From contig JAJEKV010000839.1 of the NCBI GenBank assembly GCA_021234155.1, forward strand, positions 1-64,000: DNA of 64,000 bases, in the 5' to 3' direction. The stretch is from Isoetes taiwanensis (Eukaryota > Streptophyta > Lycopodiopsida > Isoetales > Isoetaceae). Below the pieces are notes generated by a model, which saw nothing but the letters and a program-made list of their open reading frames with translations, made no database searches and was not told where the DNA came from. Positions within the stretch are counted from its first letter, which is position 1. The number at the start of each line of letters is the position of its first letter. The position numbers were made by a program, and so were the translations under genes. This document shows positions 23,511 to 60,087 of the stretch, piece by piece.

Positions 23511-23659
23511 TAATTATGACTTATGGATGATTCACGATGTTCTCTAATTGATCATCCCTTTTTTAGGCTCCAGGACCTGTACCATTATTAGTATTATTTT
23601 GCAAAGTATGGAACTTGAAATGTTTAGATGAATGTCTGACTGTCTTAGTTTTCATTTTA

Positions 23660-24507
23660 GATGGTCAGGTGATGGTCTTGTCTGATCAAAAGAAATATTA
23701 TGTAATAGAATCTATCGAACTCTCTCTGATGACTCTCCTCTAAAAGCAGAAGTTAGGCTAGAGGTGGATGGGATGGTGCCTAACCTTCTCTTAGCAAATT
23801 CGTGAAAAACATTATGCTTTAGGAGAGTACAATTCTTTAGGTGGACAGCTCTTCAAGGTGGTCTCAATACCAAAGAGAAGTTGGTGCTTAGAGGAATCTT
23901 GACTGAAGACCAGTGCCCACTTGGATGTCAGGCTAGTGAATCTCTTCCACATATCTTTTTTTATCCTAAAATTACTGAGTTTTGGCATTGAGTATATCCT
24001 GCCCTGAGATTAAATGTACACCAACTTGGGTGGCCTGGTGTTATATTGATCTCAAATGCATGCTCCATTGCTGCTTCCTTAGTTAGTGTGACCCTTAGTT
24101 AGCTGTGATGTGGCTTGGGGTGGGACAAAGCATCTCTAAAGAATTACTTTAGTATGGAAGTAGCTTTAACGGCTTTGTCCTACCATAGGAAGATGGGGAT
24201 GAGCTACCATAGAGGACTGGACAGAATTGACACGATTGAAGGGTTTTATAGCTACTTTAAATGTGACTGGATGAGTTTTGAAGACCTAAGTCTCAAATAT
24301 TGGGACAAGTAGGGGAAACAATTTGAGTAACCGAGTATATATGGTTTTCTTGCCATCTTGCAAATGTGGAAATAGGAGTTCCTAAAGTACACATAGTATT
24401 GATGCATAGGGATACATAACATTGGCTATAATTCTTTCTATCCGCCCATTATGTGGACTCTTTGTGTTTTATATCAATCATTATGAATAAAAAACTACAC
24501 TCTTACC

Positions 24508-25095: not shown

Positions 25096-25099
25096 GAGA

Positions 25100-39058: not shown

Positions 39059-39394
39059 GCGACATTGGGTGTGATGGGGTCTGACCTTGACTCACAGTTG
39101 AGGCAGGTAGATGGGAGTAGCCGCAATTGCCTTGTGAAGCAAGACTATGTGTCATTGCCGATTCTGAGGTTATTGAAGATGAAAGCCATACTCTTCCGGG
39201 TTGCCACGCTTTTTTGAGATAGTCGGGAATCATTTTTGACCTTAGCATTCCATTCCACGCTTCCACAACTTCCGAGCACCATCCGTGCATGACTTGGCAT
39301 TATACATACTTGAGGGTTCTAGATGGCGTGCTACCAATTATTGAGCCCTCGGTAGTCATTATCTCCGTTGTCTAGTATCATCATTCTTGTAAAG

Positions 39395-39580
39395 GTTTTC
39401 CCTTGAAAACCTTTTCGGTGAGGTTTTTTAATCCCTAGTAGTAATGATTGTACTAGCCCATTAATATGGGTCCCATGACCTATTGGTCTCAAAGTGGATG
39501 TTAAAAACTATTCTATTCTATTCTATTCTATTCTATTCTATTCTATTCTATTCTATTCTATTCTATTCTATTCTATTTGA
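39395..39580 (+). repeat. SINE-like repeat with (CTATT)n tail
   Basis: TTTTCCCTTGAAAACC, a TTTTTTAATCC segment, TAGTAGTAATGATTGTACTA, GGTCCCATGACCTATTGGTC and GGATGTTAAAAA, then about 15 copies of CTATT. The order is the complement of the copies at 30378 and 56530. Confidence 0.75.
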
Positions 39581-41533: not shown

Positions 41534-43130
41534 TTTTTTTTTTTTTTTTTTTGGAGAAAAGGAAGATTTCTATTAATCATAACGAGTTACATAAAAAAAT
41601 AAAAGAGAATCCATTAGGTTCAAAAATTTCAACTGTTTGTATACACAAAGGTGCTCGAGAATAAAGGAAAATCACAGATCGCAAAAATTGGGACGGGGGT
41701 CCCCACATACAACAATAGGAAGAGGAAGCCCGTCGAATTAAAGGTCTTGAAGGAGGGAAATCGAGTCCGATCCGGTGTCATCCTCGTCTATGATCACCAA
41801 ATCAGAGCCACCGGATCCAATTGCCGTAATTTCATTCCACTTTCGGGAGGAAAGGCAAAGAACCAAAGAGGGGCCGTGTCTAAGAAAAGGATGAGTGCTT
41901 CTCCATGGGCATCGTGTAAGGCTTTGTGATGGTAGAACATGTCTAAAATGAAGGAATTGGTTATCGGTTAGAAGCCTTTCATAATAGAAAAGAAACACAT
42001 CAAGGATATGGGCCTGATAGCCATTTTGTTCATTGTTGAATATCTCTGTAGCAGCCGCATAATTAGATAGATTAGGAAAATTGGGCTTACAATTCATCTT
42101 CGTTGTGAGAGCAATCAGCAGCTCTGAATATCACAAAATTTTCATCAGTAAAAATCATACCATCACACACAAAGATGTTATTAAAGCCTACAAATTATTC
42201 TATAGACAATCAAGTATTATCAGATTTATCTTGTTTGCCATTCTTATGAGCCATTGCAATTCTAGAGATCTCTATCTGAAAAGCTACCTTCATCCAGGCA
42301 ATATCCACCTTATAATTTGAATAATTGACCTTCTTCCTGTGTTTTCAAATAATTCAAAGGGCAGTCTGTTTAAGAGTATTGAGAAATCTATTAGACCCTT
42401 TTAGAAGGTCCATCATATTGGCCCACTTGCCTAAATTATGGCTTTTGCCTTAAAATAGTTATCCGACCATCTCGAAGTCTCTAATTTTGGGCGGGTCGAA
42501 GATGTGATTGATAGTTTTGAGCTATGGCCCAGAGTTTACATTTAGAATTGATCGAAGATCCTTACATCTTACATACATACTATGATTAGTTGGGAGTCGT
42601 GTGGACGGGCACCTCCAAATAAACATTTGCACTTTGGGGAGAGTAGGACTTCGGTTGTTTCTCGAGAATGCTCATGAAGTGTTTATTGGGAACAAGCCAT
42701 TTACGAGTGAGTCAAAGATTTGGAAGGGGCGAACTTTGTATCCCAAGGCAACTTTGTACTTGTGGAGTTCTTTAGGTGCCGGTCGATTTTTACGGGGCTT
42801 TGGCACTCATGCGAGAACCAAAGAACGTCCATGATAGCATCATAGATGACCTTGTCAATCCTTTTGCCTCCTATAAGCTGTTTAATATATTCCCAAGTGT
42901 GCCATTTGTCCCCCTCCCAGAGATGTTGCAACTGCGTAACATCTGCCTCTTTCCATTTTTTCCAGATTTGGGGGTGTTTAAGGGCCCAGCAGACATCATT
43001 TTCTTTAGCAAAAACAGGTGACCAGAAGAGAGAGAAATTGGCACCATCATAGTTAATATCTTTATGCTCAAAACCTTCGGCCACCAAATTCCAGGCCTCA
43101 AAAATTTTCCTCAGGTATTAGGGGCACTCT
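41534..43130 (-). mobile_element. 5'-truncated LINE with perfect target duplication
   Basis: The minus strand carries the C-terminal part of an L1-type ORF2: GANFSLFWSPVF, CWALKHPQIWKKWKEA, LQHLWEGDKWHTW, then the zinc-binding segment CKLCGHSSETINHIFDCP (complement of about 42470-42550, partly frame-broken here and better kept in the right unit), and a KHRK tail. It ends in a 3' poly(A), seen as 23 T at 41530-41552. AACCTTCCTCTTTT flanks both ends (41520-41533 and 43131-43144): a 14 bp target site duplication. This defines the insertion exactly as about 1.6 kb. The frame has several breaks. Confidence 0.92.
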
Positions 43131-44035
43131 AACCTTCCTCTTTTCAAGCTAAATTCTAGGTAAATCTCTGAGAAAATTACGATATCAGTTGCATTTTGAA
43201 TGCTTTCTCCAAGAAAGATCCTTCAGTTTCATTGCCTATGGAAATCCCATAAGCTGCCAATGTAACTATCTCTTCTATACTATAACTGCAACTATCTCTT
43301 CTATACTATAGCTGCAAATTCCAGGACCAAAAGCTAAACTAACAATTTTTTCTCACGAATCACAAATACTTTGTAAAACAAAGTACAAATATCTAGTAAT
43401 GGTGGTAAAGGATACCATGGAATCCACGGTTGAGATGCAACAACACCAATTTCATTGACAATGCGGCTTAACTCGTATTGCTACCACAACAAAGAATATT
43501 TTGCAAGATTTTGAAAAGCAATGCAGAACAAAAATTAGACTGAAGCAAAAATTGGATAAAAATTTCCAAAAATGTAATTTTCTAAAATAAAACTACCAAT
43601 GAAGGAGGAACTCGTTAGCGTCTTCTTAGCACAAAGGGACTCAAAACTGAAAGAGGAAACCGAGGCGCCTTCTAAGACTCGCTATTCTCAGAATTAATAA
43701 AGGGAAAGCCACAACCTTTCTAAAAAAAATAATGAGAATCTAGATACAAAGGAAACATGGATGCAACAAGCATCTCTAAAAGGAGCTAATCTCTATAAAT
43801 AATTGTATTGCATTCAAAAATATGTTATGAAGGTGGCGTATCTCTTCAAGCCAACCTCTATAATAATTGTATTCAAAAAATATGTCATATGAAGGTAGCA
43901 TAACCTCATATCTATCACAAATAAACACATGTACGGAAAGAATCTCAAGCCTCTTGAGTGGCAAATGTTAACATATTCACGAAAAGAATGTCCAAGCGTG
44001 CTTGTTGCCCTTTCTTTTCAGCAGGCAATTGTGAG

Positions 44036-44990
44036 AGGGCCTAACTCTTCTAACACCATATTTGAAGCATGGCCTCTTACGTTTTAAGCTCGGAGGCGCA
44101 CTTTTACTAGTAGATCGCAACAAAGGGTGTGCAAAATTTCTTTACCTGAGATATCCTTTCCTCAGGATCGGGCTGCAACATAGCCAAAACAAGGCTCTTT
44201 GCTTCTTCCGACACCAAACCAAGCGGCCAATGCAAGTGTGAGGCAGCCGGATCCACCGCCATGGAGGAGTTCTTCGTGAATTTGCGATTTTTAGACACGA
44301 GAAGTGATGATTAGAGTAAGCGCCTCATACAGGATCAAACCAGACCCCATATGTCTATCTCGCGTGGAATAATGTCCACCGCACAACCTCGGAGCCAAAT
44401 ATCTTGGTGTTCCGACTACGGATGTAAAGCTGGGAGCAGAACACGAAAAACAAGCCGATATGCGAAATCGAAACCCTAACATCATAGGGTTTTCTTTGCT
44501 GAGGTCACAAAGAACGTTGTTCGGCTTCAGATCCGATTGGATAATGCCCTTTGATGAAGGTCCTGTATAGCTAGAGCAAGATTTGAATAAGAAGAGCCGC
44601 TTCCTTTTCGCATAGCACGCCTTTTCTTGGTGATTACATCAAGCAAGCTACATTCGCACAATTCCATGATCGGTGCCGAATCCCTCGTCTTTGATTACTT
44701 CATGTATATGCACTACGCCGTGGCTGCTGGCTAATTTACGCATGATCTCTATTTCCGTGATCGGCCTGTGGCTCCTACCCGGATGATTTTGCAAGCAAAC
44801 TCTTTCTTACCACCCTGTTTTACTTCGCGCAGAAAACCGGTAGCTTGGCCACGGCGCCGATTTCCTTAAGCGGATCATAGCTCTCATAAGATTGGGAAAT
44901 AAAGGGAATAGGTGTAGTTGAGAAATTCTTCGTCTGATCTCCTGCGTCTCCGTCTCCATACTCGCACTGTAAGTAATGCCAACACAATGC
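44036..44990 (-). pseudogene. Ser/Thr protein kinase, copy in the left tandem unit
   Basis: This minus-strand copy of the kinase gene aligns over its whole length with 50039-50989 but the frame is broken many times. Readable pieces include EEAKSLVLAMLQPDPEERIS, the activation-segment piece VGTPRYLAP and the SCSAPSFTS stretch. The catalytic loop (HRDLKPGN) and the glycine loop are disrupted. Many differences from the intact copy change CTG or CAG to a CG-containing word (CTCTGG to CTCGG, GACTCTGG to GACTACGG, CCTGAAAAAC to CACGAAAAAC). It is either a true pseudogene or a silent copy whose sequence was misread at methylated CHG sites. Confidence 0.85.
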
Positions 44991-45389
44991 AAATGCAGCG
45001 TTCTTATACCTCCGTAAGTTGTCATACCGACCGCACTTTCCGTTCTATAAATATCGATTCGATGGGGTGCCGATGGGGTCGCGACCACGTGCTACGGATT
45101 GAGGCGGGTAGATGGGAGTAGCCCGCAAATTGCCGTGAGAAGCAAGACTATGTGTCCATTGCCGATTCTGAGGTTATTGAAGATGAAAGCCATACTCTTA
45201 CGAGTTGCCCCGCTTTTGAGATAGTGGGAATCATTTTTGACCTTAGCATTCCATTCCACGCGCTTCCACAACTACCGAGCACCATCCGGGCATGACTTGG
45301 CATTATACATACTTGAGGTTCTAGATAAGCGTGCGCAATTACCGAGCCCTCAGTTAGTCATTATCTCCGTTGTCTAGTATCATCATTCT

Positions 45390-45583
45390 TTAAAGGTTTT
45401 TCCCTTGAAAACCTTTTCGAGGCGAGAGGTTTTTAATCCTAGTAGTAATGATTGTACTAGCCCATTGTATGGGTCCCATGACCTATTGGTCATAGTGGAT
45501 GTTAAAAAACTATTCTATTCTATTCTATTCTATTCTATTCTATTCTATTCTATTCTATTCTATTCTATTCTATTTGATAGCCC
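45390..45583 (+). repeat. SINE-like repeat with (CTATT)n tail, duplicated copy
   Basis: Duplicate of the repeat at 39395-39580 inside the right 6 kb unit. The tail has a similar number of CTATT units, slightly shorter. Confidence 0.75.
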
Positions 45584-47543
45584 TTCAAGTTGAACTTCAA
45601 CAGCACGTCAGAGATTTTCATTGCCCGTCAAAAAGTGATGACCTTCGGATCTGAAGTTTATCACTAACGCGATTTTTGGAGATGCAGACTATGTCATCAT
45701 TCGATTTTCTTATTGCTTCAATCCCCTTCAAAATTTCAAAATCCTCATCGTTTGAACGTCATAATGCTCCTTTCGCCAGGCCAAGTTGATCATTGACGAA
45801 TTTCGGAAGTACACTGATGGCAATGAACTGCGATTCTTGGTGCTTCAATCTTGCTTTGAATCTCGAAGTGGCCATCACCAGAGCGTCATAATGGCCGTCG
45901 CCAGACTTCATTATGCCCGTTGAGCCTTTCAAACAAGCTTGCAGAAAAAAATTAAAAATAAACCCAAATATCATTCCATACAATAAGCGTATTCTTATTA
46001 GAGCAAAAATCAATCTTAAATTGGCTTGTCTACAAAATTTTCTCGTCTAGGGCACTCACATCACGAAGAATCCATCTCCCATGCCATCTCTAGAAGTATC
46101 GACGATGTGAAATAGGGGTGCATATTATAGTTCATTTGAAGATGTATGCATGGTGTGATGTCGTGTCTAGTACACAACATCCAGGCTTCCCCACAATTAA
46201 ATTATTTCATCATCGGTCTCAAATGATCATCTAATGATTATGCTTTTCATAATGCATAATGCACCAATAAGCAACTACAAAAGTTTTGAAAGCTTGCAAC
46301 TCATGTTGAAAGCATCATTTTCCTTCCACATAATAATATGGTATGGCTATGACTTTGTCGCATATAAGTTAGGGGTGTGTGCTTTAACTCAATTCAATTC
46401 AATTTAAGGACCTTTTGACAATTAAAGATAATTGATTGTAGACTTTAGGGCATATAATTGAGTAGGGACCTTATAATGTTGAAACTAAAAGTGTGGCATA
46501 AATAAGCTCATCTATAAAGTAGTACAAATTAGAAAATATCTATGGTAACTATCATGTTTATTTTCCTATTACAGGAATGGCCGAGGATGCATGCAATAGT
46601 AGAGGTTTGTAGATATCTTTACATTGGACCAATAACGTTCTAAGCTCAATGACTGAGGAAACATGTAATATGTAGAGATCAGTAGATATCTTTACATTGG
46701 AACAATAATGTTCTAAGCTCCTTGTATACGACTATGGCATCGTTTTTTGAAGAGGCATTTTTATTGTGTAACTGTAAGGATATAATTGGGCATAGTTGCG
46801 CATTTTCTGCAAATTTGTAAGAAAGTGGTAGGGTCTTCTTTATGCATGTATTTTCAAGTGTAGAAACAACCATGTTCATTGAATTTCTTGCCAATGTTAC
46901 CCCTAATGTTTATCAGCAAACATTTCTGAATAGAATAGATATCCAGTAGTGCATCAAAGCAATGAAAGTTGCAAATATAAAACTATATATGCATATTTTG
47001 TCTAATCTAAAATTTCATTTTCCACATCTAAATTACAAATAGAAGGTTTATCATTTGCTATGTTGGTTGTCACTTAAATGCTTTCCTGTTACACTTCCCT
47101 ATGTTCTCCACATTGATAATTGAAAAGAAGGGGCACATCTTTTTAACTGGAATGTTGCAATGCTAAGTAGCAAGTGTTATACATACTGCAATCTTCTAAG
47201 ATTAGACATTTAAAGTTGAATTTTACATCAATATGTTAAAAGCGTATCTCCATGCTGCAAAATCACATGAATTAGAATATGATGTAATGCTGCACCAATT
47301 AGACTATTTGGAATGAAATAATTGTTATAAATGTTTTGGACATATCAAATGTGGAATATGAGGATGAAGTATCATTTTGCTATTTTGGGATTTGAAAAAC
47401 AAGACTTACAAAGATCTGAGATAACTTGTATGGGGAAGTATAGATTGAATACAAAAGGAATTCATATGCAACACAGGAAAATGAAGCATCTTTTCATGCC
47501 CAAAAAACAATAAAAAGTTCACGATTGCAAACCTTCCTCTTTT

Positions 47544-49147
47544 TTTTTTTTTTTTTTTTTGGAATATTTGTATTAATCATAACGAGTTACATAAAAAAAT
47601 AAAAGAGAATCCATTAGGTTCAAAAATTTCAACTGTTTGTATACACAAAGGTGCTCAGAATAACCAGAAAATCACAGACTGCAAAAATTGGGACAGGGGG
47701 TCCCCCACATACAACAAGCCGAGGAAGAGGAAGCCCGATCAGAATTAAAGGTCTTGAAGGAGGAAATCGAGTCCGATCCAGTGTCATCCTCGTCTATGAT
47801 CACCAAATCTGTAGCCACCGGATCCAATTGCCAGCCAATTTCATTCCACTCGGGAGGAAAGGCAAAGAACCAAAGAGGGGCCGTGTCTAAGAAAAGGATG
47901 AGTGCTTCTCCATGGGCATCGTGTAAGGCTTTGTGATGGTAGAACATGTCTCTGAAATGAAGGAATTGGTTATCAGTTAGAAGCCTTTCATAATAGAAAA
48001 GAAACCTGTCAAGGATATGGGCCTGATAGCCATTTTGTTCATTGTTGAATATCTCAGTAGCCGTGATAATTAGATAGATTAGGAAAATTGGGCTTACAAT
48101 TCATCTTCGTTGTGAGAGCAATCAGCAGCTCTGAATATCACAAAATTTTCATCAGTAAAAATCATACCATCACACACAAAGATGTTATTAAAGCCTACAA
48201 ATTATTCTATAGACAATCAAGTATTATCAGATTTATCTTGTTTGCCATTCTTATGAGCCATTGCAATTCTAGAGATCTCTATAGAAAAGCTACCTTCATC
48301 GGGCAATATCCACCTTATAATTTGAATAATTGACCTTCTTCCTGTGTTTTCAAATAATTCAAAGGGCCGTCTGTTTAAGAGTATTGAGAAATCTATTAGA
48401 CCCTTTTAGAAGGTCCATCATATTGGCCCACTTGCCTAAATTATGGCTTTTTGCCTTAAAATAGTTATCCAGCCATCTCCAGAAGTCTCTAATTTTGGGG
48501 CAGTCGAAGATGTGATTGATAGTTTCAGAGCTATGGCCACAGAGTTTACATTTAGAATTGATCCAAGATCCTTACATCTACGTACATACTATGATTAGTT
48601 GGGAGTGCGTGATCTGAGGCACCTCCAAATAAACATTTGCACTTTGGGGAGAGTAGGACTTCCGGTTGTTTCTCGAGAATGCTCATGAAGTGTTTATTGG
48701 GAACAAGCCATTTACCAGAGTGAGTCAAAGATTTGGAAGGGGCCAGAACTTTGTATCCCAAGGCAACTTTGTACTTGTCAGAGTTCTTTAGGTGCCAGTC
48801 AGGATTTCTGGGGCTTTGGCACTCATTCTGAGAACCAGCAACGTCCATGATAGCATCATAGATGACCTTGTCAATCCTTTTGCCTCCTATAAGTCATTTT
48901 AATATATTCCCAAAGTGTGCCATTTGTCCCCTCCCGGAGATGTTGCAAGCAAGCGTAACATCGCCTCTTTCCATTTTTTTCGATTTGGGGGTGTTTAAGG
49001 GCCCAGCAGACATCATTTTCTTTAGCAAAAACAGGTGACCAGAAGAGAGAGAAATTGGCACCATCATAGTTAATATCTTTATGCTCAAAACCTTCGGCCA
49101 CCAAATTCCAGGCCTCAAAAATTTTCCTCAGGTATTAGGGGCACTCT
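47544..49147 (-). mobile_element. Same LINE insertion in the right 6 kb unit
   Basis: Duplicate of the 41.5-43.1 kb LINE, with the same 14 bp flanking repeat AACCTTCCTCTTTT (47530-47543, 49148-49161) and a 21-base T run. The zf-RVT segment is more complete here: GHSSETINHIFDCPKI is readable on the minus strand near 48490-48540. Differences from the left copy are mostly at CAG/CTG sites, for example CCAGTCAGGATTTCTGGGG here against CCGGTCGATTTTTACGGGG. Confidence 0.92.
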
Positions 49148-50038
49148 AACCTTCCTCTTTTCAAGCTAAATTCTAGGTAAATCTCTGAGAAAATTACGAT
49201 ATCAGTTGCATTTTGAATGCTTTCTCCAAGAAAGATCCTTCAGTTTCATTGCCTATGGAAATCCCATAAAAGTCGCCAATGTAACTATCTCTTCTATACT
49301 ATAACTGCAACTATCTCTTCTATACTATAGCTGCAAATTCCAGGACCAAAAGCTAAACTAACAATTTTTCTCTGAATCACAAATACTTTGTAAAACAAAG
49401 TACAAATATCTAGTAATGGTGGTAAAGGATACCATGGAATCCACGGTTGAGATGCAACAACACCAATTTCATTGACAATGCGGCTTAACTCGTATTGCTA
49501 CCACAACAAAGAATATTTTGCAAGATTTTGAAAAGCAATGCAGAACAAAAATTAGACTGAAGCAAAAATTGGATAAAAATTTCCAAAAATGTAATTTTCT
49601 AAAATAAAACTACCACAGAAGGAGGAACTCGTTAGCGTCTTCTTCGCACAAAGGGACTCCAAAACCTGAAAGAGGAAACCGAACTGCCTTCTAAGACTTC
49701 TGCTATTCTGTAACTAATAAAGGGGAAAGCCACAACCTTTCTAAAAAATAATGCAGAATCTAGATACAAAAGGAAACATGGATGCAACAAGCATCTCTAA
49801 AAGGAGCTAATCTCTATAAATAATTGTATTGCATTCAAAAAATATGTTATGAAGGTGGCGTATCTCTTCAAGCCAACCTCTATAATAATTGTATTCAAAA
49901 AATATGTCATATGAAGGTAGCATAACCTCATATCTATCACAAATAAACACATGTACAGAAGAATCTCAAGCCTCTTGAGTGGCAAATGTTAACATATTCA
50001 CAGAAAGAATGTCCAAGCGTGCTTGTTGCCCTTTCTTT

Positions 50039-50989
50039 TCAGCAGGCAATTGCAGAGGGCCTAACTCTTCTAACACCATATTTGAAGCATGGCCTCTTAC
50101 GTTTTAAGCTCTGAGGCGCACTTTTACTAGTAGATCTGGCAACCCAAGGGTGTGCCAAAATTTGCTGCACAGATATCCTTTCCTCAGGATCAGGCTGCAA
50201 CATAGCCAAAACAAGGCTCTTTGCTTCTTCTGACACCAAACCAACTGGCCAATGCAAGTGTGAGGCAGCCAGATCCTCGCCATGGAGGAGTTCTTCGTGA
50301 ATTTCTGCAGTTTTTAGACCTGAGAAGTGATGATTCCGAGTAAGCGCCTCATACAGGATCAAACCCAGACCCCATATGTCTATCTCTGTGGAATAATGTC
50401 CCTGCACAACCTCTGGAGCCAAATATCTTGGTGTTCCGACTCTGGATGTAAAACTGGGAGCAGAACCTGAAAAACAAGCCGATATGCCGAAATCCGAAAC
50501 CCTAACATCATAGGGTTTTGCTGCTGAGGTCACAAGAACGTTGCCTGGCTTCAGATCCCGGTGGATAATGCCCTTTTGATGAAGATCCTGTATAGCTAGA
50601 GCAAGATTTCGAATAAGAAGAGCCGCTTCCTTTTCGCATAGCCTGCCTTTCTTGGTGATTACATCAAGCAAGCTACATTCGCACAATTCCATGATCAGGT
50701 GCCAGAATCCCTCGTCTTTGATTACTTCATGTATATGCACTACGCCAGGGCTGCTGGCTAATTTCTGCATGATCTCTATTTCCGTGATCGGCTCTGTGGC
50801 TCCTACCCAGATGATTTTGCAAGCAAACTCTTTCTTACCTCCTGTTTTACTTCTGCAGAGAAAAACCGTAGCTTGGCCACCGCTGCCGATTTCCTTAAGC
50901 AGATCATAGCTCTCCAGAAGATTGGGAAATAAAGCAGAATAGGTGTAGTTGAGAAATTCTTCGTCTGTCTCCTGCGTCTCCGTCTCCAT
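50039..50989 (-). CDS. Ser/Thr protein kinase, intronless, CAMK/PPCK-like
   Basis: This is the only intact protein gene recognised: 316 residues, no intron. Residues 25-285 form one complete kinase domain: glycine loop GSGGQATV (35-42), catalytic lysine in FACKII (58), acidic helix EIEIM, catalytic loop HRDLKPGN (143-150), DFG (166-168), GTPRYLAPEV (185-194), DIWGLGLILYE (204-214) and a C-lobe ending at AHPWVA. The C-terminus is short and basic (SLKRKRPCF), a possible nuclear signal. There is no EF-hand, transmembrane or receptor region, so it resembles the PEP-carboxylase-kinase/CAMK type, but the substrate is unknown. The start METETQET is preferred because its context (A at -3, G at +4) is good. 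An in-frame ATG 12 codons upstream has a poor context. Three broken copies lie at 22.3, 44.0 and 58.8 kb. Confidence 0.85.
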   Translation of the reverse strand: METETQETDEEFLNYTYSALFPNLLESYDLLKEIGSGGQATVFLCRSKTGGKKEFACKIIWVGATEPITEIEIMQKLASSPGVVHIHEVIKDEGFWHLIMELCECSLLDVITKKGRLCEKEAALLIRNLALAIQDLHQKGIIHRDLKPGNVLVTSAAKPYDVRVSDFGISACFSGSAPSFTSRVGTPRYLAPEVVQGHYSTEIDIWGLGLILYEALTRNHHFSGLKTAEIHEELLHGEDLAASHLHWPVGLVSEEAKSLVLAMLQPDPEERISVQQILAHPWVARSTSKSAPQSLKRKRPCFKYGVRRVRPSAIAC

Positions 50990-51081
50990 ACTCAGAATTC
51001 TGTAAGTAATGCCAACACAATGCAAATGCAGACGTTCTTATACCTCTGTAAGTTGTCGCACTGACTCTGCACTTTCCGTTC

Positions 51082-51089
51082 TATAAATA
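51082..51089 (-). promoter_or_regulatory. Possible TATA box of the kinase gene
   Basis: TATTTATA on the minus strand (TATAAATA on plus) lies about 95 bp before the kinase start codon and is kept in the copies near 45050 and 59775. It could serve either direction, since HSP90 and adenylate kinase fragments lie on the other side. Confidence 0.35.
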
Positions 51090-51433
51090 TCAGTTCTATT
51101 CCTGGCTGTCGGGAAAAAGGCCACATCTAAATTAGGAAAAGGCCCAGATACTTGTGTGCTGTCCGTCGGATGTTGGCACGATCCCAAAGCCAACTATACC
51201 GCCCGTTGATGCACAAACACATTGACATGCTCGCAGAGACAGAAACAAAAAGTACAGACAGGATTGGTGGCATTCAGAATTTGCGAATTCCCTGGGAACA
51301 GAGGTATGAATTTTGCATTTGGAATTGGGAAGCTGCCACTTTAGGTAATGGCTTGAAGCCTAACTTACTTTTGTTTTGTTGTGTGCAGCCTTTCAATCAT
51401 CTAGAACTGTTTGCAAACCAAATCATAGTCAAG

Positions 51434-51532
51434 TTCGGTGTCCAGTTTTACTCTGCTTTTGTTGCTAAGAAGGTCATTTTTACTACCAATGGTGGTGATG
51501 AGCAATACGTCTGGGAGTCTCACGCTGGGGGG
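51434..51532 (+). pseudogene. HSP90 N-terminal fragment
   Basis: Within an open frame at 51152-51607, residues 95-127 read FGVQFYSAFVAKKVI, FTTNGG and DEQYVWESHAGG. This is the strand-turn segment of the HSP90 ATP-binding domain (normally FGVGFYSA and DEQYVWES). The glycine after FGV, which is part of the nucleotide lid in HSP90, is replaced by Gln. A plausible intron (TTAG then GTAATGG to GTGTGCAG, about 51345-51389) precedes it. Only some 35 residues of HSP90 are present, so this is a captured exon fragment. It lies tail-to-head with the adenylate kinase fragment on the same strand, 360 bp downstream, and divergent to the kinase gene. Confidence 0.75.
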
Positions 51533-51617
51533 CTCCAAATGGGAGTATTGTTATGGAGCTGGGTTATTAGTCCTGTTGTCACTTCTTGGGGGTTCGAAAA
51601 GGATTGAAAATTGATAA

Positions 51618-51842
51618 TTATGTCAAAAAGGATCTGGCACTTTCTGAAGGGTGCTCAGAAGCTGCCTGATTCTGTCTGGGATGTATGATAACTGCCTTGC
51701 CCCTCTTGCTAAAGTATGCATGAATGGCTTGCACGTCTTTGCCAACTGTGCAGAATGAGTTCAGGCAGAGGAGGATCCCGTATCTGGATGGCTTTGCATA
51801 TTCTTGTGCCCTCTTCTCCAAGTTATTATCGATAAAGTTCAT
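51618..51842 (-). CDS. Conserved unknown open frame, 74 codons
   Basis: A minus-strand frame begins MNFIDNNLEKRAQEYAKP and contains NSFCTVGKDVQAIHAYFSKR. The same frame is open, with a slightly longer upstream part, at 22931-23236 in the deleted copy. Its conservation may only reflect recent duplication. I do not recognise it, and it lies between the HSP90 and adenylate kinase fragments on the opposite strand, so it may be chance. Confidence 0.2.
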   Translation of the reverse strand: MNFIDNNLEKRAQEYAKPSRYGILLCLNSFCTVGKDVQAIHAYFSKRGKAVIIHPRQNQAASEHPSESARSFLT

Positions 51843-51894
51843 CTGAAAGACTCAGTGAAAGACTCAGTGGTGTTTTCGTTTGAAATAGACTGTA

Positions 51895-52452
51895 ATGGAA
51901 ATGAGAACTCAAGGAGAGCCACCAAAGGTCATGATCTCTGGGCATCCAGCATCAGGAAAGGGTACAATGCGAACTTATAAAGAAAAAGGTATTTCACTTT
52001 CTCAATCCATGATTTATATTTCGTTGGACACTTTAGCTTTATTGACAATCTGTTTGGAAAAACTCCCAGTAAAATTTGGTACATATTTCAGTTGGTAACC
52101 TGTTGCAGGCTGAAGTGGCCGCAGGAACAGAATATAGAAAGAAGGCTAAAGACTATATGGACCAGGGAAAACTAGCTTCTGATGAAGTTGTGGTCACAGT
52201 AATTATGACTTATGGATGATTCACGATGTTCTCTAATTGATCATCCCTTTTAGGCTCCAGGACCTGTACCATTATTAGTATTATTTTGCAAAGTATGGAA
52301 CTTGAAATGTTTAGATGAATGTCTGACTGTCTTAGTTTTCATTTTAGATGGTCAGGTAGAGACTGGAACAAGATGATGTGCAAGAAAAGCATGGCTTGGA
52401 TGGATATTCCTGCAGTTTATCTCGGGCAGACCACAGTTATTCCTCCTCCTTG
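51895..52452 (+). pseudogene. Adenylate kinase fragment, copy 2
   Basis: Exon-like blocks on the plus strand match plant adenylate kinase. Block 1 (51895-51989) encodes EPPKVMISGHPASGKGT, the P-loop, and ends at a GTATTT donor. Block 2 (52109-52198) is exactly 30 codons between TTGCAG and GTAATT: AEVAAGTEYRKKAKDYMDQG, then KLASDEVVVT, the AMP-binding region. Block 3 starts at 52348 after ATTTTAG with MVR, a stop, RLEQDDVQEK, then a damaged GLDGY stretch that in active enzymes carries a conserved DG-PR motif. The segment between the P-loop and block 2 that normally holds a GD motif is missing. The in-frame stop and missing part make this non-functional. It is shared with the 23.2 kb copy. Confidence 0.8.
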
Positions 52453-52459
52453 AGGTGAG

Positions 52460-55400
52460 CACAAGTACTCCTTGTTTGCAATGGAGAGTTTATGCCCCAC
52501 ATGTTTCTGCGTCTAATGAATATAACAAAGGAAATTATGGTAAAAAACCATAGTTGTTATGATCTTCATTCCTATATGGCTTTGCATAGACCGAGCCACC
52601 GAGGGGTTTACAAAATATTGTATGGTGGTGGAAACTGTTGATGCTGGTGAAGAAACTACAAGAGATGGCAATGGTTAAGGAACCCTTCCACCTTCTTAGA
52701 ATTGCCCTGATAGATGCAGCAGAGGTAGATGCCTTACTTTCTTATTATCCATGCAAATTTTATTGGCCTTGCTTTACCAGTCTCCAATATCTTCTAAAGC
52801 ATACACATGGAAATAAGGAAACGGAAGCAGTAGACTAAACTAGCCTGATTGTGGCAGGCATGACTGGTCTAAAAGAAGGTTGTGAACTTACAAAACTCTC
52901 TAAAGAATGGGGGACCCATTTTAGGATCTGTTGCAGCAAATAAATGAAGATTTATACTCTTCTAATGTTGAATATCTAATCACAATGGGACAAAAGCATG
53001 TACCAAATACATGAGCTAAACTATGGAGCTTCTAAGACCCTATGGTCCACTCTTTTATACAATATAAGGTAGGCCAAAGAAATCAAAGGAATAGCTATGT
53101 GCTTCCTTTTAGTGCCCCATCCAAATTTTACCACTTAAAAAAAAAGGGAGGGAAATAAAGCACCACCAAACACAAAATTACTCACAGTTCATAGAGGTTA
53201 AAATTCAAAGATGTCGAAGAAAACCCAGGCTGGATCACAGAGGTGGCAAGGCTTGCAATGCTTGTCCAAAAAATAACTACCATTTTTGTACATCAAACCA
53301 TGAAATAACAATAACAAGGGCCTTGTTCTGCAAGCACTCAGTTCAATAGTTTGAATGATAACATATAATAGCCATTTTTCTTTTGAAAAATCCAAGTAAG
53401 CTTTAAAATGAGATCTCAAGCATACCTTTAGAAGAGGCATGACAGAAGATACTACAATACCTTATCTCATTTTGCCTTTTACAGTAGCATTATGTGTCGC
53501 CGCTTTAGTCTACCGAGTATGCAATGTACAGCCCCTTGCAACTAGCCAATAAATGATGCATGAAACAAAAGGCAAATCTCCAACCTTTTGGCGTTTGGTA
53601 GGCAACTTCCATTTCAGATTAGAGACGCCTGATGACGCGAAAGAACAAAAATAAATGATATGCATTACAGACGCTAACCACCTTTGAGAATAGTCCTAAG
53701 AATTTACTTGAAGGTGCTTACTCGTGTTGATCACCTCAACTTTCTAACCATTTCTAGAACATTCAAGATGACCTTAGATGATCTAAGAGTGTCCAGAGGT
53801 TCATGCCAATGCCTTCAATTCTCCCTACCTGTTAGTTTCCTTTGGAACCAGCATTGCATGCAATTGACTGCTCACTGTACCATGGACAACATTTTATAAA
53901 GGAAGACAATCAACATAACAGGTACTTTTATCCTTTTTAAAAGGTACAGTAACTTTTTAACAATACTCCAAAACCACAGACCTTCAAAATAGAGTACACC
54001 AATGATGGAATTACCAATGCCCCAAATGCTATAGGGCTAAAAACTGGAAACAGTACAATCTGCAAATAAGCAAAATCACTCAATACAATGAATACCACAT
54101 CAAATAAGCAAAATCACTCAATACAATGAATACCACATCAGCACTGCATCATTACACTGGCTAAGAAAGTTAAAATACTGGGAAGGATGGATATGTCAGA
54201 TGCATATGTAGAGACAAACTATGGAGTATCATGATATAGCCACAACAAACATGTACAAATCCTGAAGTTTACAGGTTTCCAAGGGGACCACAAACATGAG
54301 CATTAGTTCCTGCCAGTTTTCTGTCAGTTCCTTACAGCTTTTCCAAATCTCAAGAAAATATTGGTGATGTTTTGGCATCACACACATGTAGTTGCAATCC
54401 TATGACACGAATTTGCTTGCATCACACTGTCAATAAGTTGCTTAATTGAAGGCATGTAAGACAAAACATTGGTGTTGCACTATGCTTTAAGATATGCTTC
54501 TCACCTCCAACTTCCATCTCCACCGCATTGTAAAGTGGCTTAAAATTACCATGAAAGAAGCAGCATAAACATGCAAATCTACTGCAGAACATTCATCCAC
54601 ATGTAGGTAGTATTTAAGCTTATCACTTTGTCTGTAATTTATAAAATGTAAAGGACAATACATCAAAGCATCACCCTAGCACAATAGTAGTGACAGTTGC
54701 CAACCAAACGTCAAAACAACTTTCATTTTAGATTGGAGACATAGATGACGCAGAGATTGACAATCCGTAAAAAGAGCAACAACCTATGAACAATCAAAGT
54801 TAACTTTTGACCTCCTTAGAATCGAAGAATAGCATTATTTGCATGTTCAACACATTAGTATGGAGACATTAATATTTGCTTAGACGTTTTCCGAACATTA
54901 GAAAATAGAAAAGTAGAAAACGTGTTACCTTAACCTTCTAAGAATGCATCCATGAATGTCTCGTGCATCCATGATATTCCTAACAGTTTTGCTGACATGT
55001 GCCTCTTGCAGCCATGCCCACAACTCCACCTGTCAATGGCAAGAAAATAATGTTAGTCTGGAAATGTAAACAGATAAGCATAACCAGATTTCATGCTTTC
55101 TCCTGCATCAATAATTGCTCCGTTTCCATCGTGAATTGCTTCTATCTAAATTTATGCACTACATGGGAAGGATATTTTTTTAAATCCAAGACAAATATGG
55201 GCACAGATTGAATAAACCTACTTGAATCATCAATAGTGTGGCCCTCTTACATTTAAAAATGCTATGCCAGATCAATATTTTTGCCATCTTACATTCTCAA
55301 AAGGTCTTGTTACAGACCCGGCAACTGCAACTGCCAACAAACATCTTTCTTTTCTGATGAAAAATGGCTCTACGGATCTAATTATTTAAAAGACTGCTTC

Positions 55401-55880
55401 AACCATTCTGGACTTCAAAAGCATGGAAGCCCAAATGAAAAAACTAACAAACTGCCTGTAGTGGTTGTTAAAACAATGGATTTGAGTTTGCATTGGCACA
55501 CCACCACCATCAACTAAACTTAACAAGTAGAGTTTTTGGGTTGCAAGTAATTTGAATCACTTAGGGTCAAGGTTTCACTCTCTATTTCTACAAATTTGCT
55601 ATTGTGGAACCCTTCATATTTCAACTCAGGGTAAGGAGGCTCTAAGGTGGCCTATCCTTCTCACAGATCCAGACAAATCGACCTAGCTTGCATAACGTTA
55701 TAGTGAACAAACATGAGTAGCTTGCATGCAGATTCAACATCATGCCTAACGATGAAAACAAATGTTACCGTTCGCACCCATAATGAAAAAGCATTCTTAT
55801 ATGTGCAACTCTGGCATTTTTTGTTATTCGTTCGTGTTGGGAGGTATAACCTCAAGCCAACTAAAATTGAAGAATGGAAT
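52460..55880. other. Intergenic, no gene recognised
   Basis: AT-rich, CAG/CTG-rich sequence without recognisable domain. It includes a short tandem duplication at 54063-54138 (38 bp twice, CAAATAAGCAAAATCACTCA at each start) and two loosely similar stretches near 53590 and 54690 (both with GATGACGC after an AGATT-GAGAC motif), suggesting an old duplication. Confidence 0.5.
54063..54138. repeat. 38 bp tandem duplication
   Basis: Two identical adjacent copies beginning CAAATAAGCAAAATCACTCA and ending AATACCACAT. Confidence 0.95.
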
Positions 55881-56030
55881 GATTTTTATTGTTCATGGGG
55901 ACCAATCGGCCTATGGAACCCAATGAATGAGCACATCACATCAGACTTATTACTATCCGGATTAAAGAACCCCCGCCCCGAAGGATTTTCGAGGGGAAAA
56001 TCATGACAATAATAAGAATGTTATCAAACT
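55880..56030 (-). repeat. SINE-like repeat, no tail array
   Basis: TTTTTATTGTTCATGGGGACC, CAATCGGCCTATGGAACCCA, ACTTATTACTATCCGGATTA and a hairpin around AACCCCCGCCCCGAAGG, in the same order as 56530-56720. It lacks the pentanucleotide array. Confidence 0.7.
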
Positions 56031-56454
56031 GTACGAATATATATCATGAGATATATATACATGTCAGGTGAATGTTCGAGAATGTAGGTGATCCCCCAGA
56101 TCCATGACCCTCTGAAGGTATGATCCCATCATCCATATTGAAGCTATGCTCAATATCACATGTAGCGGCTGGCTGGGCCTGACCAACTTATTATAGCATG
56201 TCCGAATTTGACCATAACTGGACATCTCTAAAGCAAAATGACTAAATATGGAGGATTTTACATGTATAATTCTTTATGCATGATTAGAATTGTCAAAATA
56301 ACAATGTACTAGACAAATTCAAGAAGCAAACAAATCTACAAAAAAATTTAGAAAACTAAAATTAATAGAAATGTTGTATACATACTTATAGATTCAGTTT
56401 CTTGACAAAATTAGAATGCATTAGGTATGCCCGATCAAACCATTGCTGCAAAAA

Positions 56455-56730
56455 ATCATTCTATTCTATTCTATTATATTCTGTTCTATTCTACAATATG
56501 TGAGCTCATTTTGGTGTTGCATTTATTCTTCTAACAATTACGAATAGAATAGAATAGAATAGAATAGAATAGAATAGAATAGAATAGTTTTTATCATCCA
56601 AAGAGACCAATCGGCCTATGAGACCCAAGAAGGAGCACAACAGACTTATTACTATCTGGACTAAAAAACCCCTGCCGCGAGGGGTTTTCGAGGGAAAAGT
56701 CATAGGAGTAATAAGAATGTTGTCAAACTG
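56455..56730 (-). repeat. SINE-like repeat with (GAATA)n tail
   Basis: (GAATA)n at about 56543-56587, then TTTTTATCATCCAAAGAGACC, AATCGGCCTATGAGACCCAA, ACTTATTACTATCTGGACTA and hairpin CCCCTGCCGCGAGGGG with a further TTTTCGAGGGAAAA. A (CTATT)n tract in opposite orientation lies just upstream at 56458-56493. Confidence 0.75.
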
Positions 56731-56734
56731 TAGA

Positions 56735-57230
56735 AATATACTTGGCATTAGTCCATCCTCGCATCTTTAAGAAATGGAGAGCCCATGGGATTTTGAGCTT
56801 ACGACATCTATGGGAGAATAGTACATGGATCTCATGGTCTAAATTCAGACTTATAGTGCAAAGAATAGGAGAAGGAGACAGAAGGATGCTAAAAAAGATT
56901 TTGGAAACGGTTAAGCTTTTCTCTGGGGTTGATTGTTCTAGGAAAAAATAGTCTTGTACGGTCAAAGAAATGTATATTATAGCTAGAATCTATCAGGCTC
57001 TCTATGATGGCTCTCCTCTAAAAGCAGAAGTTAGGCTACAGGTGGATGGGATGGTGCCTAACCTTCTCTTAGCAAATTCGTGAAAAACATTATGCTTTAG
57101 GAGAGTACAATTCTTTAGGTGGACAGCTCTTCAAGGTGGTCTCAATACCAAAGAGAAGTTGGTGCTTAGAGGAATCTTGACTGAACACCAGTGCCCACTG
57201 AAGAATAGGAAGCGTCTTGCTCCCATCTGT
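56735..57230 (+). mobile_element. LINE ORF2 C-terminal fragment
   Basis: The plus strand encodes VHPRIFKKWRAHGILSLRHL, WENSTWISWSKFRLI and GEGDRRMLKKILETVKLFSG, then in broken frames the ALQGGLNTKEKLVLRGIL region also present near 23850. This is the stretch between the reverse transcriptase and zf-RVT of an L1-type element, related to the 23.7 kb LINE. After CAGTGCCCACT the two copies differ. No poly(A) follows. Confidence 0.8.
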
Positions 57231-57415
57231 ATGTTTTGTGAAGGCACTTGTTCGTTCTCCCTGCCGTAGAAAACATTGTTGCCATTGTAGCCAATAACTC
57301 CCTTTTTGGGCATTTTGGTAATTTTAGCAAGGTGTAGGGGGCATTCTGGCTTTTTTCCTATGATCTATTCGCTACTAGATTACTTTTGATGAACTTGGTT
57401 GTGCTGGATCTATGG

Positions 57416-57487
57416 CGCAGTGGTAGCGCGTCTGACTCCAGATTAGAAGGTTGCGTGTTCGATTCACGTTGGGTTCAATTTTGTGTT
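57416..57487 (+). tRNA. tRNA-Trp (CCA)
   Basis: A 72 nt tRNA with anticodon CCA. A box TGGCGCAGTGG and B box GTTCGATTC are complete, and the anticodon arm is TCTGA-CTCCAGA-TTAGA. The acceptor stem GGATCTA pairs fully with TGGGTTC, including wobble pairs. A short T run follows for Pol III termination. No CCA is encoded, as in eukaryotic nuclear genes. It looks functional. Confidence 0.93.
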
Positions 57488-57686
57488 CCAATATGAGAAG
57501 CACTTCTCGTAATTTTTGGTGTTACACTCAGATGATTCAAGCAAGTAGAACACTCATGTTACATTCCAAATGCTCTGATCTGAGTGAGTGTGACACTCCA
57601 AATTCTCTTTAACTCCAATTCAGCAATGCCTTTCTATCTGTATACATGATCTATTAGAGGGCTTTAAGAAGCTAAAATTCTATTAT

Positions 57687-57759
57687 GGGGTTGTAGCTCA
57701 GATGGTAGAGCGCTCGCTTTGCATGCGAGAGGCATTGGGATCGATACTCAACTTCTCCA
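57687..57759 (+). tRNA. tRNA-Ala (TGC), probably decayed
   Basis: A 73 nt tRNA-like sequence with a normal A box (TAGCTCAGATGG) and anticodon TGC in CTTTGCATG. The T loop reads ATCGATA instead of TTCGANN, which breaks the Pol III B box. The acceptor stem GGGGTTG against CTTCTCC has two T-T mismatches. The T stem still pairs through TTGGG/CTCAA. Probably a pseudogene. Confidence 0.75.
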
Positions 57760-57773
57760 TTGTTTTTGTGCAT

Positions 57774-57941
57774 CATTGTTAAATAGGGATATAAAAGACT
57801 CACTGGGAAATGACCTCGAATTGAAATTTAAACAATAGCATTGTTAAATAGCGATATGAAAGACTCAATAGCTGGGAAATGACCTCGAATTGAAATTTAA
57901 ACAATAGCATTGTTAAATAGCGATATGAAAGACTCAATAGC
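57774..57941. repeat. About 67 bp tandem repeat, 2.5 copies
   Basis: CATTGTTAAATAGCGATATG, AAAGACTCAATAGC and TGACCTCGAATTGAAATTTA recur at about 57774, 57839 and 57908. The last is cut off where the kinase-block copy begins. Confidence 0.92.
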
Positions 57942-59892
57942 GTAAATCTCTGGGAAAATTACGATATCAGTTGCATTTTGAATGCTTTCTCCAAGAAAGA
58001 TCCTTCAGTTTCATTGCCTATGGAAATCCCATAAGCTGCCAATGTAACTATCTCTTCTATACTATAACTGCAAATTCCAGGACCAAAAGCTAAATTAACA
58101 ATTTTTTCTCTAAATCACAAATACTTTGTAAAACAAAGTACAAATATCTAGTAGTGGTGGTAAAGGATACCATGGAATCCACAGTTGAGATGCAACAACA
58201 CCAATTTCATTAACAATGCGGCTTAACTCGTATTGCTACCACAACAAAGAATATTTTGCAAGATTTTGAAAAGCAATGCAGAACAAAAAATTAGACTGAA
58301 GCAAAAATTGGATAAAAATTTCCTAAAATGTAATTTTCTAAAATAAAACTACTGATGAAGGGGAGGAACTTCGTTAAGCGTCTTCTTCGCACAAAGGGAC
58401 TCAAAAACGGAAAGAGGAAAACGAGCTGCCTTCTAAGACTTACGCTATTCCGTAACTAATAAAGGGGAAAGCCACAACCTTTCTAAAAATAATCACGAGA
58501 ATCTAGATACAAAAGGAAACATGGATGCAACAAGCATCTATTCTAAAATTCAAAACATATGTTATGAAGGTGGCATCTCTTGAAGGAAGGAAGGAAGGTA
58601 TTGGAAGCCAACCTCTATAATAATTGTATTCAAAAATATGTCATATGAAGGTAGCATAACCTCATATCTATCACACAAATAAACACATGTCTGAAGCCTC
58701 TTGGTGGCAAATGTTAACATATGCACACAAAAGAATGTACAAGCACGCTTGTTGCCCTTTCTTTTCAGAGACAATTTGAGGAGGGCCTAACTCTTCTAAC
58801 ACCATATTTGAAGCATGGCCTCTTAAGTTTTAAGCTCGAGGCTCACTTTTACTAGTAGATCACGGCAACCCAAGGGTGTGCCAAAATTTCTTACCTGAGA
58901 TATCCTTTCCTCGGGATCAGGCTGCAACATAGCCAAAACAAGGCTCTTTGCTTCTTCGACACCAACCCAACTGGCCAATGCAAGTGTGAGGCAGCCGGAT
59001 CCTCGCCATGAGGCGGTTCTTCGTGAATTTCTGCTGGTTTTTAGACACGAGAAGTGATGATTCGGTGGCGCCTCATACGGGATCAAACCCGGACCCCATA
59101 TGTCTATCTACGTGGAATAATGCACAACCTCGAGCCAAATATCTTGGTGTTCCGACTACGGATGTAAAACTGAGGCGAACGTAACGAAAAACAAGCCCGA
59201 TATGCGAAATCCGAAACCCTAACATCATAGCAGGAGATCACAAGAGCGTTGCACGGCCCGGATCGGTGGATAATGCCCTTTTGATGAAGGTCCGTATAGC
59301 TAGAGCAAGATTTCGAATAAGAAGAGCGGCTTCCTTTTCGCATAGCACGCCTTTCTTGGTGATTACATCAAGCAAGCTACATTCGCACAATTCCATGATC
59401 GGTGCGAGAATCCCTCGTCTTTGATTACTTCATGTATATGCACTACGCCCGGCTGGGCTAATTTTACGCATGATCTCTATTTCCGTGATCGGCTCTGTGG
59501 CTCCTACCGGATGATTTTTGCAAGCAAACTCTTTCTTACCTCCTCTTTTACTTATGAGAAAACCGTAGCTTGGCCTTGGCGATTTCTTAAGCGGATCATA
59601 GCTCTCAAAGATTGGGAAATAAAGCGAGAATAGGTGTAGTTGAGAAATTCTTCGATGCTGTCTCCTGCGTCTCGTCTCCATACTCCAAATTACGTAAGTA
59701 ATGCCAACACAATGCAAATGCAGACGTTCTTATACCCTGTAAGTTGTCGACCCGACTCTGCACTTTCCGTTCTATAAATATCGGTTCTATTCACGGTGCT
59801 CGGGAAAAAGGCCACATCTAAATTAGGAAAAAGGCCGGATACTTGTGTTGTCCGTCGGATGTTGGCACGATCCCAAAGCCAACTATACCGCC
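57942..59892. repeat. Fourth copy of the kinase block
   Basis: Matches 49180-51188 in order, from AAATCTCTGGGAAAATTACG to GCCAACTATACCGCC. The left end abuts the 67 bp tandem repeat. The right end abuts a copia LTR. Near 58578 it holds an extra 22 bp (AAGGAAGGAAGGAAGG plus TATTGG) not present in other copies. It lacks the LINE, because its left end starts just after the LINE site. Confidence 0.92.
58770..59690 (-). pseudogene. Ser/Thr protein kinase, copy 4, frame-broken
   Basis: The minus strand aligns with the intact kinase gene along its length. Pieces such as KKEFACKNH, GATEPITEIEIM and EEAKSLVLAMLQPDPEERIS are readable, but the glycine loop, the catalytic loop (RDLKPGN) and the activation segment are broken by small gaps and substitutions. 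As in the 44 kb copy, many differences turn CTG or CAG into CG-containing words (CTCTGGAGCC to CTCGAGCC, TTTCTGCATG to TTTACGCATG). No product is expected. Confidence 0.87.
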
Positions 59893-60087
59893 TGTAGCAG
59901 AATGGATCAAACAAGAGAGCAAGAACCGGGGACCAAGAAGTGTGCAAATAAGCCGTCCAGAATCGTTGGAACAGCCTGGTACTTATAATCCTAAAGTACA
60001 ACGTATCTCGCCATATTTATGGCGTGGCAGACTTACGCTTTATGAAGAACTTCCTATAACTAACCCTAACAAGAATATCTTCTATCA
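59893..60087 (-). repeat. 3' LTR of a Ty1/copia element
   Basis: The 195 bp segment begins TGTAGCAGAATGG and ends TTCTATCA on the plus strand (TG...CA). The adjoining CTCCCCATT is a polypurine tract on the minus strand, next to the LTR as expected. TATAAGTACC on the minus strand may be the LTR TATA box. The flank CCGCC (59888-59892) should recur beyond the other LTR, which lies outside the window. Confidence 0.65.

What the first reader, a model, noticed from the sequence alone, without database searches (positions are those of the whole stretch)
43780..59890. Copies of the kinase locus differ mainly at CAG/CTG sites, which read as CG in the broken copies
Seen: where the intact gene (50-51 kb) has CTG or CAG, the copies at 44 kb and 58.8 kb very often have a CG-containing word. 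Examples: CTCTGGAGCC to CTCGGAGCC or CTCGAGCC; GACTCTGG to GACTACGG (both copies); CCTGAAAAAC to CACGAAAAAC; TTTCTGCATG to TTTACGCATG (both); ATGATCAGGTG to ATGATCGGTG; TATCAGTTC to TATCGGTTC. The same bias is seen between the two LINE copies (42.5 against 48.6 kb) and between satellite monomers (CACAGATG against CACGGATG). Ordinary decay of methylated CHG would give TTG/CAA, not CG. Inference: silent, CHG-methylated copies were misread by a base-caller that knows 5mC mainly in CG context. If so, many frameshifts here are artefacts and the pattern maps methylation directly. The alternative is an unknown context-specific mutation process.
Basis: partly seen in the sequence, partly recalled or inferred. 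Interest (0 to 1): 0.85.

Follow-up and report, generated by a model that had tools for sequence, protein, structure and literature searches.

The report
Base-caller misreads posing as mutations
Copies of a kinase gene, predicted to be from a plant, differ mainly at CAG/CTG/CCG sites, where the broken-looking copies often read CG instead; these are likely nanopore misreads of methylated DNA that later correction probably missed in repeated sequence, so much of the copies' "pseudogene" damage is probably not real.

Summary
In the kinase locus 49 of 77 CAG/CTG sites of copy B are altered in copy A and 56 of 77 in C. Among changed sites readable between exact flanks, 24 of 34 (A) and 26 of 33 (C) gain a CG; 0 and 2 are deamination products; comparison triplets gain one in 1 of 317 and 1 of 272. 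A truncated fourth copy D keeps 65 of 71 of B's sites. This argues for misreading, not mutation. The precedent is nanopore consensus error at Dcm CCWGG sites (PMC6591954).

That the pattern maps methylation directly is only partly supported. In the 4 kb before the kinase, A and B swap roles as the altered copy in runs (p 0.00015), e.g. 357 bases of A, then 86 of B. Patchwise short-read polishing, with reads going to the cleaner copy (PMC8812927), would do that; methylation should not. Likely picture: CHG-methylation misreads plus incomplete polishing. No reads or bisulfite data could be consulted. Ordinary as biology; a useful warning about pseudogene calls.

The parts
45099..51206 (.). Copy B: second unit of the 6-kb tandem pair (to 51099; the match to C runs to 51206), holding the intact kinase frame; retains CAG/CTG in the kinase part, altered at scattered sites and small patches before 49.3 kb
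   Evidence: self-comparison, aligned differences
50042..51037 (-). Intact single-exon protein kinase frame of B (Pfam PF00069, E 9.3e-58)
39098..45063 (.). Copy A: first unit of the tandem pair; 49 of 77 CAG/CTG sites of B altered in its kinase part
57942..59895 (.). Copy C of the kinase locus; 56 of 77 CAG/CTG sites of B altered, plus true-looking divergence away from CHG sites
22055..23670 (.). Copy D: truncated copy (about 0.9 kb missing between the parts matching 49807-50614 and 51538-52357); keeps 65 of 71 CAG/CTG sites of B but has one- or two-base run-length changes in 11 of 20 difference events (counted by eye)
42464..42820 (.). Stretch of A altered at 13 CAG/CTG sites where B (48470-48836) is intact (one site inside intact in both)
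48894..48981 (.). Adjoining stretch of B altered at 5 CAG/CTG sites where A (42878-42963) is intact: the two copies swap roles
39098..39760 (.). Stretch where A and B differ in 28 events, 24 of them with CAG/CTG in neither copy (15 of these with CG in one or both): both copies probably misread, in different words
46572..58296 (.). Longest segment assigned to the CAG/CTG-rich state (319 CAG/CTG against 171 CG sites), holding the intact gene and two tRNA genes; flanked by CAG/CTG-poor, CG-rich segments
   Evidence: two-state segmentation, tRNAs

Best explanation
The CG words that replace CAG, CTG and CCG in the broken-looking copies are likely nanopore base-calling errors at 5-methylcytosine in CHG sites, left behind in repeated sequence where later short-read correction probably failed. 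Shown: differences between the copies sit mainly at CHG sites; where a CAG/CTG is changed and readable it mostly becomes a CG word and hardly ever a deamination product; and the wording can differ at the same site. Inferred: CHG-methylated plant DNA gave a current signal that the base-caller, knowing methylated C mainly before G, resolved as a CG word (CTG to ACG, CCG or CG; CAG to CGG, CGA, CGT or CG), and the consensus kept it. Inferred: short reads then corrected the assembly patch by patch; among near-identical copies they went to whichever copy was already cleaner, so one copy became clean (the intact gene B) and its twin kept the errors. On this reading most frameshifts in A and C are artefacts, and clean sequence means either unmethylated or successfully polished.
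For: Site specificity: 66 of 135 events (A/B) and 44 of 71 (C/B) at CAG/CTG of B against about 17 expected; CAG/CTG altered in 49 of 77 and 56 of 77, CCG in 12 of 23 and 12 of 23. Product: 24 of 34 and 26 of 33 changed readable CAG/CTG sites gain a CG, deamination-type 0 and 2; four comparison groups of other W-centred triplets gain one in 1 of 317 and 1 of 272. Off-site: in CHG neighbourhoods 120 of 686 bases differ (A) and 147 of 686 (C), elsewhere 24 of 1152 and 61 of 1152. Two-base changes (CT to AC) and different words at one site (TATCGATTC at 45052, TATCGGTTC at 59779, for TATCAGTTC at 51088). D agrees with B at the three quoted sites that it covers and loses 4 of 33 CAG/CTG sites where A loses 21 of 33 and C 26 of 33. 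Frameshifting events at CHG: 17 of 22 (A), 22 of 22 (C), although 31% of the frame is within one base of a CHG. Indels outnumber substitutions away from CHG and CG in A/B (17 and 9) and D/B (8 and 1), as in long-read consensus (own knowledge). CAG/CTG scarcity goes with CG abundance over the window (1-kb bins rho -0.35, p 0.005; GAC/GTC control -0.11). Runs of alternation before the kinase. Literature, passages read: about 70% of nanopore consensus errors at Dcm CCAGG/CCTGG in K. pneumoniae with default models (PMC6591954); nanopore errors at GCWGC and GCTGG in Listeria (PMC10687267); [quoted passage not shown] reads prefer the error-free copy of a repeat during polishing (PMC8812927).
Against: No raw reads, platform, species or methylation data were seen; the genome search did not complete. 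10 of 34 (A) and 7 of 33 (C) changed readable sites do not give a CG, and 28 of 77 and 32 of 77 sites could not be read between exact flanks. D is clean at CHG but has several run-length indels; a polishing pass should have removed those too, so polishing alone does not explain D. Away from CHG and CG, C differs from B by more substitutions (11) than indels (7), so part of C's divergence is real. Five sites of A's kinase part lack their CAG/CTG in B by column count. Satellite support is weak and 4 of 18 words are deamination-type. The window-wide correlation is modest, and CAG/CTG also correlates with GpC in 2-kb bins (rho 0.38, p 0.03). No paper describing this exact error in plants was listed.
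Confidence: 0.87

Rival explanations
1. Pure methylation map: there was no effective polishing, and clean stretches are simply unmethylated DNA (the active gene B, copy D, the tRNA region) while CG-word stretches are CHG-methylated. The pattern would then read out methylation directly.
For: D is clean at CHG (6 of 71 lost) yet has run-length indels, as expected of unpolished, unmethylated DNA; the longest clean segment holds the intact gene and two tRNA genes.
Against: In the 4 kb before the kinase the altered copy alternates between A and B (48 sites in 11 runs against 22.3 expected, p 0.00015), which near-identical tandem copies should not show for methylation (own reasoning). B's 996-base frame is intact although A shows 5 frameshifting events away from CHG over the same length; but C shows none, so this point is weak.
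Confidence: 0.25
2. An unknown mutation process that acts on CHG sites in silent copies and turns them into CG words.
For: The changes are site-specific and recur at the same sites in A and C (44 of 90 CHG sites hit in both, Fisher p 0.0002).
Against: It would need two-base changes and one-base deletions ending in the same kind of product, different products at the same site, far fewer changes elsewhere, and alternation between tandem copies. I know of no enzyme that does this (own knowledge).
Confidence: 0.04
3. Ordinary decay of silent, methylated pseudogenes.
For: C has divergence away from CHG sites, with transitions among it (61 of 1152 bases).
Against: Methylated C decays to T: 0 of 34 and 2 of 33 changed readable CAG/CTG sites show that. 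A differs from B at only 24 of 1152 bases away from CHG, so there was little time for decay.
Confidence: 0.03

Closest known systems
Dcm-motif consensus errors in nanopore assemblies (Wick et al. 2019, PMC6591954; passages read)
   Same: Errors concentrate where 5-methylcytosine lies in C-W-G (CCAGG/CCTGG), with models not trained on it; they survive consensus building
   Different: There a bacterial methylase and one pentanucleotide; here CAG/CTG and CCG sites generally, as plant CHG methylation would give; the misread words are not given in the passages read
Modification-mediated nanopore errors at GCWGC and GCTGG (Chien et al. 2023, PMC10687267; passages read)
   Same: Motifs with a C-W-G core; whole-genome amplification, which removes modifications, improved the genomes
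   Different: Listeria; the authors call the mechanisms unclear and found no significant excess of 5mC loci in the poor genomes; no plant data (0 occurrences of 'plant')
Residual errors in repeats after short-read polishing (Polypolish, PMC8812927; passages read)
   Different: Described for bacterial repeats; here inferred from alternating runs
Plant-specific nanopore base-callers (Ferguson et al. 2022, PMC9749173; passages read)
   Same: Proposes that plant methylation lowers accuracy of general models
   Different: No CHG, CAG or CTG in its text (0 occurrences each)

Membership tests
Nanopore modification-mediated consensus error | Errors concentrated at the sites of a known cytosine methylation context | tested here: met
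   CHG sites most altered: CAG/CTG 49 and 56 of 77, CCG 12 and 12 of 23
Nanopore modification-mediated consensus error | Products are not those of deamination | tested here: met
   0 of 34 and 2 of 33 deamination-type; 24 and 26 gain a CG
Nanopore modification-mediated consensus error | Same site read in different wrong words in different copies | tested here: met
   TATCAGTTC of B reads TATCGATTC in A and TATCGGTTC in C; 24 of 28 events in 39098-39760 hold CAG/CTG in neither A nor B
Nanopore modification-mediated consensus error | Disappears in amplified DNA or in short reads | not testable with these tools
   no reads available
Long-read consensus with homopolymer errors | Small indels outnumber substitutions away from the modified sites | tested here: inconclusive
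   A/B 17 indels, 9 substitutions; D/B 8 and 1; but C/B 7 and 11, C/A 7 and 13
Plant CHG (CMT3-type) methylation | CAG/CTG more affected than CCG | tested here: inconclusive
   64-73% against 52%, with 23 CCG sites only; the preference is recalled
Plant CHG (CMT3-type) methylation | 5-methylcytosine present at the altered sites | not testable with these tools
   no bisulfite or signal data
Winner-takes-all short-read polishing | In near-identical copies one copy per patch is clean, the other not | tested here: met
   32 sites altered in A only and 16 in B only fall in 11 runs, 22.3 expected, p 0.00015
Winner-takes-all short-read polishing | Short reads were used and are missing over the altered stretches | not testable with these tools
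   assembly record unknown
Methylation-driven decay (C to T, RIP-like) | TAG/TTG or CAA/CTA at former CAG/CTG | tested here: not met
   2 of 67 changed readable sites in A and C together

The most novel reading that the evidence does not exclude
A plain assembly file carries a readable imprint of CHG methylation: CAG/CTG scarcity with CG excess marks silenced DNA and its absence marks active islands, so methylation state could be read from old unpolished nanopore assemblies without signal data, and many annotated plant pseudogenes would turn out to be intact genes.
Probability: 0.3. Interest if true: 0.55.

Novelty: not a real feature. Interest (0 to 1): 0.35.

Why it matters
If right, pseudogene calls, divergence dates, CpG statistics and repeat ages in such assemblies are wrong in a directed way: young copies look several per cent diverged, with frameshifts concentrated at CHG sites. 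A count of CAG/CTG against CG between recent duplicates is a quick test that any assembly user can run.

Tried and rejected
Ordinary deamination and an unknown mutator were tested by product spectrum and rejected. A direct methylation map was weakened by the alternation of A and B. Flanking-base context of altered against spared sites gave no sharp rule (50-86% by flank class, 4-30 observations each). Species identification failed: the 120 best-listed relatives of the kinase (of 1738) are 27-39% identical, the three best being from Asparagus, Selaginella and Closterium, and two other open frames, 31604-32206 and 42704-43117, found no relatives at E 0.001; 'plant' is therefore inferred. The first satellite comparison used overlapping intervals, aligned badly (36% identity) and was discarded, then redone on three separate units. 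Papers: ten searches, some with capped lists, judged by titles and abstract starts; none listed a paper on CHG-specific consensus errors in plant assemblies. I did not calibrate the misread words on bacterial Dcm sites, and I drew no conclusion on CG gain from the words made from CCG sites.
Full report
What is there. The window holds four copies of a kinase locus: a 6-kb tandem pair, A (39098-45063) and B (45099-51099), a third copy C (57942-59895), and a truncated copy D (22055-23670) that matches B on both sides of a missing 0.9 kb. B has an intact 332-codon frame with a full protein kinase domain. Its three best relatives in a large protein search are from Asparagus, Selaginella and Closterium, at 35-39% identity, with other plants, animals and bacteria further down the 120 listed. 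A plant, or at least a streptophyte, is inferred; the species is unknown.

Of 135 merged differences between A and B, 66 touch a CAG or CTG of B, against a mean of 16.7 for random placement (maximum of 1000: 30); for C against B it is 44 of 71, against 16.9 (maximum 27); for D against B, 4 of 14 and 2 of 6, within chance. By triplet, CAG/CTG sites of B are altered most (49 of 77 in A, 56 of 77 in C), then CCG (12 of 23 in each). All three are CHG, the symmetric non-CG methylation context of plants (own knowledge). Away from CHG sites 24 of 1152 bases differ in A and 61 of 1152 in C; in their neighbourhood 120 and 147 of 686.

The products are the telling part. Where exact four-base flanks let the word be read (49 of 77 sites in A, 45 of 77 in C), 34 and 33 sites are changed, 24 and 26 of them gain a CG, and 0 and 2 are the C-to-T products that decay of methylated C would leave. 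Four comparison groups of triplets with A or T in the middle gain a CG in 1 of 317 (A) and 1 of 272 (C) readable cases; triplets that overlap a CAG/CTG, such as TCT, do show CG gains, as they must. Words include CTG to ACG, CCG or CG and CAG to CGG, CGA, CGT or CG. I know of no mutation that gives CT to AC in one step at several sites. The same site can read differently in A and C. D agrees with B at the three quoted sites that it covers and loses only 6 of 71 CAG/CTG sites (B lacks 5 of D's 70); in the stretch shared by all it loses 4 of 33, against 21 in A and 26 in C. So the CAG/CTG form is most simply the original, and A and C carry the changes.

Consequences for the gene copies. In the coding part, A has 43 difference events, 37 at CHG sites of B; 22 shift the frame, 17 of those at CHG. 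C has 44, 39 at CHG; all 22 that shift the frame are at CHG. For comparison, 31% of the frame lies within one base of a CHG. The damage that makes A and C look like pseudogenes is thus mostly of this kind, although C also has real-looking divergence: away from CHG and CG it differs from B by 11 substitutions and 7 indels.

Beyond the copies. Along the window, CAG/CTG scarcity goes with CG abundance (1-kb bins, rho -0.35, p 0.005), which a GAC/GTC control does not show (rho -0.11); a two-state segmentation splits the window into CAG/CTG-rich segments, such as 13559-17610, 22201-25241 and 46572-58296, and CG-rich, CAG/CTG-poor ones. The longest of the first kind contains the intact gene and two tRNA genes. 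This is what clean and misread sequence would look like, but it is a modest correlation, and in 2-kb bins CAG/CTG also correlates with GpC (rho 0.38, p 0.03). The satellite at the left end gives weak support: 5 of 18 readable CAG/CTG sites gain a CG against 19 of 846, and 4 of the 18 are deamination-type (the ordered pairs are not independent).

Why some copies are clean. In the 4 kb before the kinase, 48 sites are altered in only one of A and B: 32 in A, 16 in B. They fall in 11 runs where 22.3 are expected (p 0.00015); runs are from 1 to 13 sites long, and a few one-site runs may be alignment slips. For example A is altered at 13 sites in 42464-42820, then B at 5 sites in 48894-48981, opposite the next stretch of A, then neither for 6 sites. 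In 39098-39760 both seem altered: 24 of 28 events hold CAG/CTG in neither copy. Methylation of two tandem, nearly identical copies should not trade places over such distances (own reasoning). Short-read polishing would do this: reads align to whichever copy is already error-free, leaving no coverage over the errors of the other, as the Polypolish authors describe (PMC8812927). I infer that a polishing pass happened and failed in the repeats. Against polishing as the only factor: D is clean at CHG but has run-length changes in 11 of its 20 difference events to B, counted by eye, as unpolished and unmethylated DNA would. Both factors probably act.

Precedent. With default nanopore models about 70% of consensus errors in K. 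pneumoniae were at the Dcm motif CCAGG/CCTGG, that is 5-methylcytosine in C-W-G (PMC6591954). Listeria genomes showed modification-mediated errors at GCWGC and GCTGG, and amplification improved them, although the authors call the mechanisms unclear (PMC10687267). A plant base-caller study blames methylation for lower accuracy without naming contexts (PMC9749173). No paper on CHG-specific consensus errors in plants was listed in ten searches of one open-access library, which is a limited search.

Verdict. The pattern is real in the file and very likely not in the plant. Mechanism: CHG-methylation misreads (likely) kept by incomplete correction in repeats (probable). It is a new setting of a known kind of error, ordinary as biology, useful as a warning and as a cheap test of assemblies. 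Raw reads or bisulfite data, which I could not see, would settle it.

Noticed in passing
57405-57478 and 57686-57760 (+): Two tRNA genes, Trp (CCA) and Ala (TGC), about 200 bases apart, just before copy C, inside the longest CAG/CTG-rich segment.
   Followed up: partly
22055-23670: Copy D lacks about 0.9 kb relative to B; its parts match 49807-50614 and 51538-52357, and 11 of its 20 difference events to B are one- or two-base run-length changes (counted by eye).
   Followed up: partly
31604-32206 (-): 201-codon open frame with a SET domain match just above Pfam's cut-off (24.4 against 22.4 bits), without a relative at E 0.001 in the protein search.
   Followed up: partly
39508-39577 and 45510-45574: CTATT tandem repeat with one unit more in A than in B (14 against 13), in the stretch where both copies look misread.
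   Followed up: no
26001-28000: CG is above expectation (observed/expected 1.48); the other 2-kb bins lie between 0.25 and 0.99.
   Followed up: no
6287-6888: A 0.6-kb patch with 26 CAG/CTG and 2 CG between long CG-rich, CAG/CTG-poor segments; could be a polished patch or a small unmethylated island.
   Followed up: no
50364 (B), with A and D: A and D share a CCC to CC shortening that B and C lack; it may be a systematic homopolymer error next to a CAG site.
   Followed up: no
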